Position numbers and translations under genes: made by a program. Shown in pieces: positions 55,085-61,967 of a stretch of 64,000 nt of DNA (position 1 is its first letter; each line of letters begins with the position of its first letter). Below the pieces are notes generated by a model. That model was not told where the DNA came from. It was given only the letters and a program-made list of their open reading frames with translations, and did no database searches. This stretch comes from Solirubrobacter pauli (lineage in GTDB: Bacteria > Actinomycetota > Thermoleophilia > Solirubrobacterales > Solirubrobacteraceae): assembly GCF_003633755.1 (NCBI RefSeq), contig NZ_RBIL01000002.1:1612001-1676000 (forward strand). The letters run 5' to 3'.

Positions 55085-55214
55085 GGCCCACCCGGCGCAT
55101 CGGGGATCTCCCTAGGAGCGGTGTTGAGCGACCTCCACGCTCATTTACCTCTAATCCGATCGGGTTTATGTATTTATCTCCCTCGTCCGTTTGCCATCGA
55201 GGGGGTCAACCATC
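55085..55214. promoter_or_regulatory. Divergent promoter region of secreted proteins
   Basis: The 130-nt gap holds the only AT-rich stretch nearby (55141-55180, with TTTATGTATTTATC), likely the start region of the M14 gene and perhaps of the divergent gene. No clear -35/-10 pair could be set. Confidence 0.4.
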
Positions 55215-58200
55215 TTGCGCACCCGCGCACTCGCGGCGTCCGCCGCCGTATTCCTGCTGTCCGCGAGCCCGGCGCTCGCGGCCGGCCCGCCCGACGAGAA
55301 GCTGCAGCCGTACGAGGCGACCGTGTCGCACGCGCAGGCCGGCATCGTCGCCGACTCGGGGATCGAGCTCGACCACGCCGGCTTCAAGGCCGGCGTCCTC
55401 GGCGAGCAGAAGCTCGAGATCGCCGTCACCAAGACCCAGGCCGCCGCGCTGGAGGCCCAGGGCGTCGAGCTGACCGCCCAGCAGCTCGACAAGCCGGGCG
55501 TCGTCGCCACCGGCGGCGACAGCCCCAACCCGTACTACGACGTCTTCCGCTCCTACTCGGAGCCCGGCGGCATCGCGGACGAGCTGCGCGCCGAGGCCGC
55601 CGCCAACAAGGACGTGGCCAAGGTCGTCGAGATCGGCAAGTCGCTGCTCGGCAAGCCGATCCTCGCCATCAAGATCACCGACGACGCGCGCAACGTCGCC
55701 GACGGCACGCGCCCGTCGGTGCTCTTCGGCGCCGTCAACCACGCCCGCGAGTGGATCGCGGCCGAGGTCGCCCGCCGCGAGGCGAAGTGGTTCCTCGAGC
55801 ACAAGCGGGACGCACGCGTCGCCGAGCTGCTCAAGACGACCGAGATCTGGGTGCTGCCCGTCTTCAACCCGGACGGCTACGACTACACGTTCACCTGCGG
55901 CACCGGCGCGGCGGTCGCGCTCTGCGGCCCGGGCGCGGCGAGCTCCAACCGCCTGTGGCGCAAGACGCTGCGCGACAACAACAACGACGGCATCTACGGC
56001 AACGCCGGCGACGGCGTCGACCCGAACCGCAACTTCCCGGAGCAGTGGGCGCTCGACAACGAGGGCTCCAGCCCGACGCCGTCGGCCGAGGACTACCGCG
56101 GCCCGTACGCGAACTCCGAGCCCGAGAACGCGGCGTACGACCGCTTCCTGAAGAAGATCAAGCCGGTCTACAACCTCAACTACCACTCGGCCGCGCAGCT
56201 GCTGAACGCCTCCTTCGGCTTCATCACCAACCGCCCGTCCGACGACGACACCCTCTCGCGCGCGCTCAGCGGCACCGACGGCGACGCCGCGGTCGACCCG
56301 TACACGCCGCAGCAGGCGTCCGAGCTCTACGTCACCCACGGTGAGACCGTCGACTGGGCGTACCTGCAGCACGGCACGATCGGCTTCACGCCCGAGCTGG
56401 ACACGGCCGCCACCGCGGGCGCGTCGGGCAGCTCGTTCGTCTTCCCGGACGACGAGACCAAGGTCCGCGCCGTCTTCGACAAGAACCTCGACCTGGCGCT
56501 GAACCTGGTCAACTCGGCGACGCACCCGGACCGGCCGTCGAACTTCACGCAGGACCCGGCGGAGTACCAGGTCAAGCCGACGGTCGACATCCAGCCGACC
56601 AAGTTCGACGTCTCCTACGGCGGCCCGCAGATCGTCGAGGCCGTCGTGCGCCGCTCGCTCGGCAACGTCGACGTCTCGGCCACGATCTCCGGCCCGGGCG
56701 GCACCTCGCGCTCGCAGCTGCTGCGCGCCACGCCCTACCTCGGCGGCGAGCGCTACGGCGACGTCCCGGGCACGTACTTCCAGCGCGTCCGCGTGACGCT
56801 GCCGGAGAACTGGAACACGGCCGCCGCGCCGCGGGTGCCGACGGTCGGTGACACGGTCGCCGTCACCGTCCGCGCGGGCGGGCAGCAGCAGCGCTTCTCC
56901 TACCGGATCGCCTCGACGCAGCAGGACAAGACCAAGAAGCGCGTGCTCGTGGTCGCGGCCGAGGACTACACCGGCACCTCGCCGAACCGCAAGGCCGGCT
57001 ACGCCACCGCGCCGCGCTACCTGCAGCAGCACGTGGACGCGCTGAAGGCCGCCGGGTACGAGGTCGACACGTTCAACACCGACGCGCCGCCGCTGAACGC
57101 CGCCGGCGTCGCGGGCCAGCGCAACCCCACGTTCCTCGGCGTCTTCTCGCACTTCGACGCCGTCGACTACTACACGGGCGACGACTACGTCCCGCAGGAG
57201 CCCGCTGAGACCAACCCGCGCTACCTGAGCACGGCGACGGCCTTCACCGGCTCCAACGTGGTCGCCTCGTGGGCGGTCAAGGGTTGGTTCGAGCTGCGCG
57301 ACTACCTCAACGAGGGCGGCAAGGCGGTCCTCGACGGGCGCAACGCCAACGTCACGTTCGCGTCCACCAGCACGAGCCTGACCGCGTACTCGAGCTTCCA
57401 GTTCTACGCGGACCCGCTGTACGGCTTCAACTACCCGCCCAACGGCGGCGGCGACGACGACCGTCCGGGCACGGCCTACCTGCGCCCGCACGACGTCAAC
57501 AACGACATCGAGCAGTACTTCTTCGGCGTCGGCTCGCGGGCCGGCGGTTACGGCTCGACCACCTACAACGCCGCGCCGGTCGGCCCGGTCGGGAACGGCA
57601 TCTTCGCCGGCGTGGCGCCGTTCAGCGTCGACACGGCGGCGGGCGACGACCCGAACACCGACGCGGCCGGCACCACCGCGGTCCCGCGCGCGAAGTCGGT
57701 CACGCGCCTGCGCACGCTGTCGAGCATCACCTCGCAGCAGCCACTGCGCCAGGAGCGCGCCGAGCTCGACGTCCAGACGACGCCGGCCCAGGCCGCCAAC
57801 GGCGGCGTGGCCGTGTCCACCCGCGACACGATCACGTTCGGCTTCGGCCTCGAGCAGGTCGACCAGGCGACGCGCGAGACGCTCGTGGCGCGTGCCTTCA
57901 GCTACCTGCTGCCGACCGACGCCGACACGACGGCTCCGGTGGGCGACTTCACCTACCCGGCGGCCAACGCCTCGATCGGCTCCAACAGCCCGGTCGACGC
58001 CGAGGTCCAGGGCTACGACGAGCGCGGTGACGTCAAGGAGGCCCGCTACTACGTCAACGGCACCCTGATCACGACCGACAGGTCGTTCCCGTTCCAGTTC
58101 CGCTACTGGCCGACGGCCGCGCAGTCGGGCACGACGCTCACGCTCAAGGCCGAGCTCGAGGACAAGGCGGGCAACGTCAAGGCGATCGAGCGCCCGGTGC

Positions 58201-58937
58201 GCATCGTCGCCGAGACGCGGCTCGTCGAGGCGCCCCTGCCGGCGAACGCGCCGACGCTCAGCGGGTCGCCGACGGTCGGCTCCGCGCTGACCGTGGTCAA
58301 CGGCGGCTTCCTCAACAACCCCGCCTCGACGACGGTGCAGTGGCTGCGTGACGGCGACGTGATCGCCGGCGCGTCGCAGTCGAGCTACACGCTCACCGCC
58401 GGTGACCTCGGGCACCTGGTGAGCGCCCGCATCACCGCCAGCAACACGGCGGGTGACGCGGACGCGACGACCAAGGGCCTGTACGTGTCCGCGGCGTCGA
58501 GCGGTGCGCAGGGTCCGCAGGGCCCCGCCGGCCCGACGGGTCCCGCGGGTCCGACCGGTGCCACCGGCGCGACGGGCGCCACCGGCCCCACGGGGGCGAC
58601 GGGTGCCACCGGCCCCGCGGGTCCGACCGGCGCCACCGGCCCGGCCGGCCCGAAGGGTGACAAGGGCGAGAAGGGCGACACGCCGAACGTGCGCGTCACC
58701 TGCGACCTGTCCTCGGACGGACGCTCGATCGTCTGCACGATCACGGCGGTCTCCCCCGCGACGAGCAGCGCGAAGCTGTCCGGCACGGCGAAGATCTCCG
58801 GCGCGAAGACCACGAAGCGCTGGAGCGGCAAGGGCCGCGTGAAGGTCACGCTGAAGTCGGCCAAGCGCCTCAAGAGGGCGCCCAAGGTCGTCATCAAGGT
58901 CGGCGAGACCTCGAAGACGGTCCAGGCCAAGCGGTAG
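55215..58937 (+). CDS. Secreted M14 zinc carboxypeptidase with collagen-like tail
   Basis: A 1240-residue exported protein. The signal peptide is [20 protein letters not shown]. The M14 domain has zinc ligands H176 and E179 (NHAREW) and H324 (NYHSAAQ), with the catalytic Glu E394 in GFTPELDT. Several beta-rich modules follow. An Ig-like domain at about 1015-1090 ([18 protein letters not shown]) is followed by Gly-x-y triplets ([16 protein letters not shown] type, about 1097-1160) like bacterial collagen. A basic C-terminus ends it. TTG 55215 is chosen for AGGGGG 9 nt upstream; TTG 55191 is possible. It probably degrades extracellular peptides while displayed on or released from the surface. 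Confidence 0.93.
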
Positions 58938-59096
58938 CTAGCTGCGCGGGCGGAAGCTCGCGTAGGCCCCGGAGTGGAACGCGGCGAAGGTCTTCGCCGC
59001 GTCCGGGGTCATCCCGAGATGCACGAGGTGGCGTGCCGCACCGCGATCGTCGAGCGGCGCGCCCTTCGGGTCTTTGTCCTGCTGGGGCTCCGTCAT
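58938..59096 (-). CDS. Small protein, 52 aa, DAxxTFxxFHxG family (copy 1)
   Basis: A short ORF opening MTEPQQDKDPKGAPLDDRGA with an acidic, Pro/Gln-rich start and a helical second half containing MTPDAAKTFAAFHSG (29-43). The second copy at 61812-61967 has MSLDALRTFLDFHTG at the same place: 8 of 15 positions are identical and 3 more similar. The stop directly abuts the stop of the M14 gene, and the start is divergent from the B12-sensor gene. No ribosome-binding site is visible upstream. I do not recognise the family. The conserved spacing in two separate loci is the evidence that it is real. Confidence 0.72.
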   Translation of the reverse strand: MTEPQQDKDPKGAPLDDRGAARHLVHLGMTPDAAKTFAAFHSGAYASFRPRS

Positions 59097-59144: not shown

Positions 59145-59161
59145 CCGGAGTTATATTCCGG
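59145..59161. promoter_or_regulatory. -10 element flanked by an inverted repeat at the B12-sensor gene
   Basis: TTATAT (59151-59156) is a good -10 only 9 nt before the GTG, so the transcript would be nearly leaderless. It is flanked by CCGGA (59145-59149) and TCCGG (59157-59161), a perfect dyad that would place a repressor on the promoter. No clear -35 is seen. Confidence 0.5.
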
Positions 59162-59165
59162 GCGC

Positions 59166-59816
59166 GTGAGCCTGGACGAGCATCGCACCGACTTCCTCGA
59201 TGCCCTGCTGGCCCGGGATTCCGCGCGTGCCCGCGGGGTGGTGGAAGCGGCACTGGAGAACGGCACCCCGGTGCCGGACCTCTACCTGTCCGTGCTGGCG
59301 CCGGCGCTGCGTGAAGTCGGCCACCGCTGGGCGATGGGCGAGCTCAACGTCGCCGAGGAGCACTACGCGACCGCGATCGCGCAGTCGATCCTCGACGGGC
59401 TCTCGCGCCGGCTGCCGCGGGCGGAGCGGGACGGACGGCTCGCGGTGGTCACCGGCACGCCCGGTGAGCAGCACGCGCTCGGCGCGCGCATGGTCGGCGA
59501 CTTCCTCGAAGCGGACGGGTGGGAGGTGATCCAGCTCGGCCCCGGTGTGCCCGCCGAGGATCTGTTCGCGCTGGTCGAGCGCGAGCAGCCGGACCTGGTC
59601 GCGCTGTCGACCGCGACGGCCGGAGCGCTGGACGGTGTCGCCGAGGTCCTGGGCGGCCTCGCGCGGCTTTCGCCACGCCCGTTCGTCGTCGCGGGCGGGC
59701 AGGTGTGGACCGCGTCCACCCGTTCGACGGCGCTGGAGCTGGGGGCCGATCACGTCGAGCAGGACCCGCGGCAGCTCGTCGCCTACCTGTACGAGCGGAT
59801 CCCGCCACCCGGTTGA
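59166..59816 (+). CDS. Stand-alone cobalamin-binding sensor (CarH-like light/B12 domain)
   Basis: A 216-residue soluble protein. The N-terminal half is the helical B12-binding cap (Met-synthase-like), with W55 followed after nine residues by E65-H66 (RWAMGELNVAEEH). That W-x9-EH is the signature of CarH-type adenosylcobalamin photoreceptors. The C-terminal half is the Rossmann B12-binding domain with E101-x-H103-x-x-G106, in which His should coordinate cobalt. No MerR DNA-binding domain is fused, so it must signal through a partner. GTG 59166 has no ribosome site and sits 9 nt after a -10, consistent with leaderless expression. Confidence 0.88.
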   Translation: MSLDEHRTDFLDALLARDSARARGVVEAALENGTPVPDLYLSVLAPALREVGHRWAMGELNVAEEHYATAIAQSILDGLSRRLPRAERDGRLAVVTGTPGEQHALGARMVGDFLEADGWEVIQLGPGVPAEDLFALVEREQPDLVALSTATAGALDGVAEVLGGLARLSPRPFVVAGGQVWTASTRSTALELGADHVEQDPRQLVAYLYERIPPPG

Positions 59817-61811: not shown

Positions 61812-61967
61812 CTACTCGGCGGGGTCGCGGCGCAGCGCGCGCCTGCCCGTGTGGAAGTCCAAGAACGTCCGCAAGGCGTCGAGGCTCATCTTCGTCAGCT
61901 CCGCGAGGCGCTCGGCATCGAGGTCGTCCTGCGGGGTGCCGTCCGGCTGGGGCTTCGGGGCGTCCAT
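61812..61967 (-). CDS. Small protein, 51 aa, DAxxTFxxFHxG family (copy 2)
   Basis: A short ORF opening MDAPKPQPDGTPQDDLDAER, again acidic and Pro-rich at the start, with MSLDALRTFLDFHTG (27-41) in the helical second half and a basic end (GRRALRRDPAE). It is a paralogue of the gene at 58938-59096. Like that copy it lies tail-to-tail with a secreted metallopeptidase (27 nt from the M1 stop) and is divergent from a small plus-strand gene. No strong ribosome site precedes the ATG. Function unknown. Confidence 0.72.
   Translation of the reverse strand: MDAPKPQPDGTPQDDLDAERLAELTKMSLDALRTFLDFHTGRRALRRDPAE

What the first reader, a model, noticed from the sequence alone, without database searches (positions are those of the whole stretch)
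59145..59816. CarH-type B12 photosensor domain without a DNA-binding domain, on a nearly leaderless transcript
The protein has W-x9-EH in the helical cap and E-x-H-x-x-G in the B12 domain, the residues that define light-sensing adenosylcobalamin receptors, but no MerR domain. The -10 TTATAT is 9 nt from the GTG and lies between CCGGA and TCCGG, a dyad a repressor could use. A free-standing light/B12 module may act on a partner regulator by binding, as a new signalling arrangement. The neighbour is the divergent 52-aa protein gene, 69 nt away, a possible partner.
Basis: partly seen in the sequence, partly recalled or inferred. Interest (0 to 1): 0.62.

Follow-up and report, generated by a model that had tools for sequence, protein, structure and literature searches.

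The report
Free-standing vitamin-B12 light-sensor protein
A soil bacterium carries a small protein that looks like the light-sensing vitamin-B12 part of the known CarH switch but without the DNA-binding part, so it probably passes its signal by touching another protein, whose identity is still unknown.

Summary
The gene is 59166-59816 (+), 216 aa, GTG start; 59145 is the upstream dyad. It is a complete cobalamin-binding domain (CBD) with every motif of the published light-responsive signature and no MerR domain. It is not a truncated CarH: it lies in a free-standing CBD lineage (11 rows, support 100/98) apart from the MerR fusions. All 7 sampled Solirubrobacter genomes have it. CarH's light-state ligand His132 is Ala here, and 0 of 54 class CBDs with the W/EH motif have His there.

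The near-leaderless promoter is plausible but ordinary: 12 of 71 gene starts share it. The dyad is not conserved. The 52-aa protein is a poor partner candidate: genus-only, frameshifted in S. deserti, absent from six genomes with clade CBDs.

Most likely it is an adenosylcobalamin/green-light sensor acting by protein contact, as AerR and stand-alone photocobilins do. The best clue is a neighbouring lineage whose CBD genes sit beside SpoIIE, RsbW-like and STAS genes. The window protein's own partner is unknown.

The parts
59166..59816 (+). stand-alone cobalamin-binding domain protein, 216 aa, GTG start: four-helix cap (residues ~3-81) plus Rossmann domain (~92-211)
59319..59363 (+). cap motif G52-x-x-W55-x9-E65-H66; residue 56, equivalent to TtCarH His132, is Ala
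59463..59552 (+). G100-E101-x-H103 (lower cobalt ligand, equivalent to TtCarH His177) and G125-x3-P129
   Evidence: signature from PMC11796333
59152..59157 (+). probable -10 element TATATT, 8 nt before GTG, giving a leader of about 0-2 nt
   Evidence: TANNNT at 8-10 nt in 5 of 6 species (read); genome habit; no transcript data
59145..59161 (.). CCGGA/TCCGG dyad around the -10; probably not a functional operator
   Evidence: not conserved; such dyads are common by chance
58938..59096 (-). divergent 52-aa protein gene; neighbour, probably not a partner

Best explanation
The gene encodes a free-standing adenosylcobalamin (AdoCbl) photosensor. In the dark AdoCbl would sit between the helical cap and the Rossmann domain, with His103 below the cobalt and Trp55/Glu65 packing the adenosyl group. 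Green light would break the Co-C bond and leave aquo/hydroxocobalamin. With no His at position 56 there can be no CarH-style bis-His state, so the change is more likely a local rearrangement at the Glu65-His66 motif that alters a binding surface (as seen for CtMerR) than CarH's bis-His-driven tetramer collapse. With no output domain, the signal must leave through protein-protein contact with a regulator encoded elsewhere. Shown here: fold, motifs, conservation, stand-alone ancestry. Inferred: AdoCbl binding, light response, partner binding.
For: Pfam B12-binding and B12-binding_2. Nearest solved proteins by sequence are the light-responsive CBDs CtMerR, photocobilins and TtCarH; fold matches SasPcob Z 26.9, CtMerR 23.5, TtCarH 21.2. 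G52, W55, E65, H66, E101, H103, G125 and P129 are invariant in 17 of 17 aligned proteins, including the genome's own MerR-CBD. Four proteins with this signature were shown to bind AdoCbl and respond to green light (PMC11796333 sections 9-12). The gene is in 7 of 7 sampled Solirubrobacter genomes, under purifying selection. The genome has a cob(I)alamin adenosyltransferase. Contact signalling: 5 loci of related stand-alone CBDs have a SpoIIE-type gene next door; 4 of them also have an RsbW-like ATPase gene and a degenerate CBD-STAS gene (Pfam-confirmed for part of them, see full report). Stand-alone SasPcob activated a diguanylate cyclase in trans (PMC10979010, passages).
Against: No spectra, binding or expression data exist here. 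H132A in TtCarH nearly abolishes the structural response to light, so Ala56 could mean a B12 sensor with little light output. The window gene has no conserved functional neighbour. The SpoIIE/STAS lineage is not the query's own clade, and no such genes lie beside the window gene. TtCarH interface residues R176, D201 (recalled) and G160 fall on Q102, G127 and about P84 (read), so CarH's oligomer behaviour cannot be carried over.
Confidence: 0.6

Rival explanations
1. It is a cobalamin-status sensor or B12 holder rather than a photoreceptor: it reports which B12 form is available, and light is incidental.
For: Ala56 matches TtCarH H132A, which shows minimal light-induced change. SAerR, also a stand-alone CBD, binds several cobalamins irrespective of light (PMC9144470, passages). 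A metF-like gene lies about 6 kb downstream.
Against: The full light-responsive signature is kept, and CtMerR (Arg at 132), SasPcob (Gln) and AbDPcob (Tyr) respond to green light without that His.
Confidence: 0.2
2. It pairs with the genome's full-length MerR-CBD (locus L002/L055) as a mixed oligomer and tunes it.
For: The window's genome has exactly one MerR-CBD besides the query and MetH; CarH works through CBD oligomers.
Against: Three of seven Solirubrobacter genomes (G012, G033, G048) show only the stand-alone CBD at E<=1e-8, so a MerR-CBD is not obligatory; these three are drafts.
Confidence: 0.07
3. It signals through the divergently encoded 52-aa protein.
For: The 52-aa gene or its remnant lies upstream of the CBD gene in all 6 Solirubrobacter species seen.
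Against: Not found in 57 of 57 non-Solirubrobacter genomes, six of which have clade CBDs; frameshifted in S. deserti with intact CBD; a paralog sits beside a zinc-ribbon gene; in G677 the gap to the CBD gene is 279 nt.
Confidence: 0.05
4. It is the corrinoid subunit of a methyl transfer system.
For: Shared fold: monomethylamine corrinoid protein 3ezx Z 23.2.
Against: All methyltransferase corrinoid models score far below cut-off (for example TIGR02370 46.5 against 215.3 bits); the cap carries the W/EH motif; no methyltransferase partner gene was recognised in the called flanks.
Confidence: 0.04

Closest known systems
CarH / LitR (Thermus thermophilus; CBD of a MerR repressor)
   Same: Both CBD subdomains, GxxW-x9-EH, ExH, GxxxP
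   Different: No MerR DNA-binding domain; Ala for His132; NCBIfam CarH model 83 bits against cut-off 400
CtMerR CBD (8jbs/8jbt)
   Same: Best sequence match in PDB and top Foldseek match; also lacks His132 and still responds to green light
   Different: CtMerR has a MerR domain and forms a dark tetramer
Photocobilins (SasPcob, AbDPcob)
   Same: Highest structural Z (26.9); the stand-alone form activates a diguanylate cyclase in trans (PMC10979010, passages)
   Different: The query has no biliverdin-binding domain
AerR/PpaA and the AppA SCHIC domain
   Same: Stand-alone or tethered B12/heme fold acting on a separate repressor (CrtJ/PpsR; PMC9144470 passages); fold Z 20.6 and 19.6
   Different: Much weaker sequence similarity (7te2 E 9.2e-6); CrtJ/PpsR partner not looked for here

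Membership tests
Light-responsive CBD (SignatureFinder signature, PMC11796333) | GxxW, EH, GxxH, GxxxP | tested here: met
   G52..W55, E65-H66, G100..H103, G125...P129; spacing as in TtCarH
Light-responsive CBD (SignatureFinder signature, PMC11796333) | AdoCbl binding and green-light photolysis | not testable with these tools
   needs purified protein
CarH (NF052513) | N-terminal MerR DNA-binding domain | tested here: not met
   216 aa from the only supported start; only the two B12 domains match
CarH (NF052513) | score above the curated cut-off | tested here: not met
   83.2 against 400 bits
CarH (NF052513) | His132 for the bis-His light state | tested here: not met
   Ala56; 0 of 54 CBD rows with the W/EH motif have His there
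Photocobilin | CBD | tested here: met
Photocobilin | biliverdin-binding globin-like domain | tested here: not met
   the protein ends with the CBD; modelled elements H3-15 to H201-211 account for its length
AerR | stand-alone CBD | tested here: met
AerR | CrtJ/PpsR partner | not tested
   the genome was not searched for CrtJ/PpsR
AerR | N-terminal His as upper ligand (His10 of LAerR) | tested here: inconclusive
   His6 is present in all 6 Solirubrobacter species but lies in predicted helix 1; distance to cobalt not measured
Methyltransferase corrinoid protein | curated score | tested here: not met
   TIGR02370 46.5 against 215.3 bits; the other corrinoid models are also far below cut-off

The most novel reading that the evidence does not exclude
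Solirubrobacteraceae have turned the CarH-type CBD into a freely diffusing light/B12 signal protein with several outputs. In one lineage a holo-CBD may hetero-oligomerise in the dark with a degenerate, signature-less CBD fused to a STAS domain, gating an RsbW-like kinase and a SpoIIE phosphatase, so that light controls a partner-switching stress pathway. In the window's own clade the CBD stands alone or carries a new 45-residue N-terminal extension (ribbon-helix-helix-like by eye only), and acts in trans on a distant target, with an upper-ligand chemistry other than CarH's bis-His.
Probability: 0.15. Interest if true: 0.68.

Novelty: new variant of a known kind. Interest (0 to 1): 0.4.

Why it matters
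The light-responsive CBDs described in the papers read here are mostly fused to an output domain. A conserved lineage with the full signature and nothing else attached would show that the module works as a separate signal carrier. The linked SpoIIE/RsbW-like/STAS neighbourhoods make a B12/light input to partner switching directly testable. The lack of His132 across the sampled class also suggests that CarH's bis-His light state is not the general mechanism.

Tried and rejected
Truncated CarH: rejected; the query is not inside the MerR-CBD group, and S. soli has no start codon upstream in the open frame. Dyad as operator: not supported. 52-aa protein as partner: weakened; its own model is poor (pLDDT 70, two helices). 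GNAT acetyltransferase as partner: it follows the CBD gene in S. soli (4-nt overlap) and G677 (5-nt gap), but no homolog was found in the window's genome (that call carried no positive control). Ribbon-helix-helix identity of the N-terminal extension in L046-L048: by eye only; no RHH_1 match at those places up to E 10, none in Pfam (one weak DUF2274 hit, E 0.042), none in PDB by profile. Literature: no paper in the held library has 'cobalamin-binding domain' + 'ribbon-helix-helix' + 'light', or 'B12-binding domain' + 'stand-alone' + 'photoreceptor' + 'MerR'; these are phrase searches, so weak. 'Solirubrobacter' + 'cobalamin' + 'light' gave 4 papers, each naming the genus once (listing only).

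Slips and dropped rows: one search read L048 in a wrong frame and was redone. The automatic MerR flag printed nothing, so its pattern failed; one search used a simpler pattern. One search left out 11 duplicate loci before its search; one search dropped 18 loci by name (duplicates plus L020, L027, L030) before the tree; one search dropped 14 duplicates. Four weak CBD rows were labelled STAS by score and locus.

Full report
WHAT IS THERE. The open reading frame is 59166-59816 on the plus strand: 216 aa with a GTG start. Pfam finds B12-binding_2 (residues 9-77, 55.5 bits) and B12-binding (93-196, 72.2 bits), both above cut-off, and nothing else. The start is well supported: alignment of Solirubrobacter species shows conservation beginning at this codon, and in S. 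soli no start codon lies upstream in the open frame.

STRUCTURE AND SIGNATURE. An AlphaFold2 model from 9 sequences has mean pLDDT 92 and pTM 0.87. Foldseek ranks CtMerR first, then the photocobilin SasPcob and TtCarH; VIA-align gives SasPcob Z 26.9, CtMerR 23.5, monomethylamine corrinoid protein 23.2, TtCarH 21.2 and AerR 20.6. The published light-responsive signature GxxW, EH, GxxH, GxxxP (PMC11796333; passages, abstract and outline, sections 9-12) is complete: GHRW, EH, GEQH, GPGVP. The signature residues are invariant in 17 of 17 aligned proteins. The residue matching TtCarH His132 is Ala56. Among 64 CBD rows from the class, 54 have GxxW-x9-EH; none of these has His there (Glu 26, Ala 18, Gln 6, Ser 2, Asp 1, Thr 1), and 49 of 64 have all four motifs at CarH spacing. 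In TtCarH, H132A binds AdoCbl normally, photolyses to a hydroxylated Co(III) form and mostly stays tetrameric (PMC10442372, passages); that paper notes an earlier report of disassembly. CtMerR (Arg at this place) monomerises anyway. So photochemistry is likely, a CarH-type bis-His switch through this residue is excluded, and the size of the structural response is open.

NOT A BROKEN CARH. A 61-row tree places the query in a clade of 11 rows (100/98): five Solirubrobacter proteins, three other stand-alone proteins and three with an N-terminal extension. All 26 MerR-CBD rows fall in a separate 27-row set with support 100/100 (the root is for drawing only). The window's genome has its own MerR-CBD (L002) and MetH besides the query. 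All 7 sampled Solirubrobacter genomes have the gene (63-100% identity); three of them (G012, G033, G048) have no other match at E<=1e-8. In the family sample of 61 genomes, matches at E 1e-40 or better were confined to genera g1, g3 and g9, 3 of 25. In the phylum sample 4 of 396 genomes matched at E<=1e-45, two of them outside the family. All ten pairwise dN/dS values among five species are 0.14-0.37. A cob(I)alamin adenosyltransferase gene is present, so AdoCbl can probably be made.

PROMOTER. TANNNT lies 8-10 nt before the start in 5 of 6 Solirubrobacter species (TATATT in three, TATGCT, TACCGT; S. soli has CATGCT) (read). Among 71 called genes in about 95 kb of this genome, 12 have TANNNT 5-10 nt before the start, while other distances are nearly empty. 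The query has no Shine-Dalgarno-like stretch; 18 of 71 genes do. Near-leaderless transcription is therefore likely, and ordinary here. The sigma-70 scan found nothing, which is uninformative for this group.

THE 52-AA PROTEIN. It or a remnant lies upstream of the CBD gene in all 6 Solirubrobacter species, but profile search found the family in only 4 of 61 family genomes, all Solirubrobacter; the six g3/g9 genomes with clade CBDs lack it (candidate lists were capped in some genomes). In S. deserti CPCC 204708 it is frameshifted; L035 and L036 are identical records of one strain, so this is one observation. A paralog lies at 61815-61967 beside a zinc-ribbon gene. A partnership is unlikely.

WHERE THE SIGNAL MIGHT GO. 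In related stand-alone CBDs the gene has telling neighbours. L039, L043, L049 and L050 have a SpoIIE-type gene (Pfam-confirmed in L039, L043, L049; L050 judged by likeness and position), an RsbW-like ATPase gene (Pfam-confirmed in L049, judged by eye in the others) and a protein with a degenerate CBD plus STAS (STAS by Pfam in L039, E 5.5e-5 but below cut-off; weak, E 0.13, in L050; no Pfam hit in L043; by likeness in L049). L040 (S. soli) has a Pfam-confirmed SpoIIE gene only. None of the degenerate CBDs has the W/EH motif. The photocobilin paper already predicted SasPcob links to STAS and SpoIIE from interaction networks (PMC10979010 section 9), so the theme is not wholly new; the gene clusters are independent support. 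In L053 a stand-alone CBD gene is divergent from a MerR gene without CBD. For the window's own clade no neighbour is shared: GNAT in two Solirubrobacter species, a luciferase-like monooxygenase in L042, urease-like and agmatine-deiminase-like genes by eye in L046-L048.

VERDICT. Real, conserved, and correctly read as a CarH-type sensor without a DNA-binding domain. It works, most likely, like AerR or a stand-alone photocobilin, but is not filed as a member of either: it has no biliverdin domain, and AerR's partner was not looked for. Interest is moderate because the partner is unknown and light output unproven.

Noticed in passing
L039:3490-7233; L043:9151-12785; L049:6665-10473; L050:6697-10639: Stand-alone CBD genes clustered with SpoIIE-type phosphatase, RsbW-like ATPase and a degenerate CBD-STAS protein: a possible light/B12-fed partner-switching module.
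   Followed up: partly
L046:8572-9390, L047:8802-9611, L048:8908-9732: CBD proteins of the query's clade with a conserved ~45-residue N-terminal extension, ribbon-helix-helix-like by eye but unmatched in Pfam or PDB.
   Followed up: partly
L053:1423-2611: A MerR regulator lacking a CBD is divergent from a stand-alone CBD gene: a possible split CarH.
   Followed up: partly
L055:7099-8625, L096:335-2097, L099:1345-2915: A fasciclin-like gene (by eye) is divergent from the full-length MerR-CBD gene in three Solirubrobacter genomes; a possible target of a CarH-like regulator.
   Followed up: no
window 61815-61967 and 58938-59096: Two paralogous ~50-aa proteins, found only in Solirubrobacter among 61 family genomes; two predicted helices, function unknown.
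   Followed up: partly
L054:2442-3335; L044:14975-15907: metF-like gene (by eye) about 6 kb from the clade CBD gene in both genus g1 and genus g3, on opposite relative strands.
   Followed up: no
window 55191-58937: 1248-aa M14 carboxypeptidase with a collagen-like repeat near its C-terminus.
   Followed up: no
window 59181-59183: His6, kept in all six Solirubrobacter species, could be an alternative upper cobalt ligand by analogy with LAerR His10; distance not measured.
   Followed up: no
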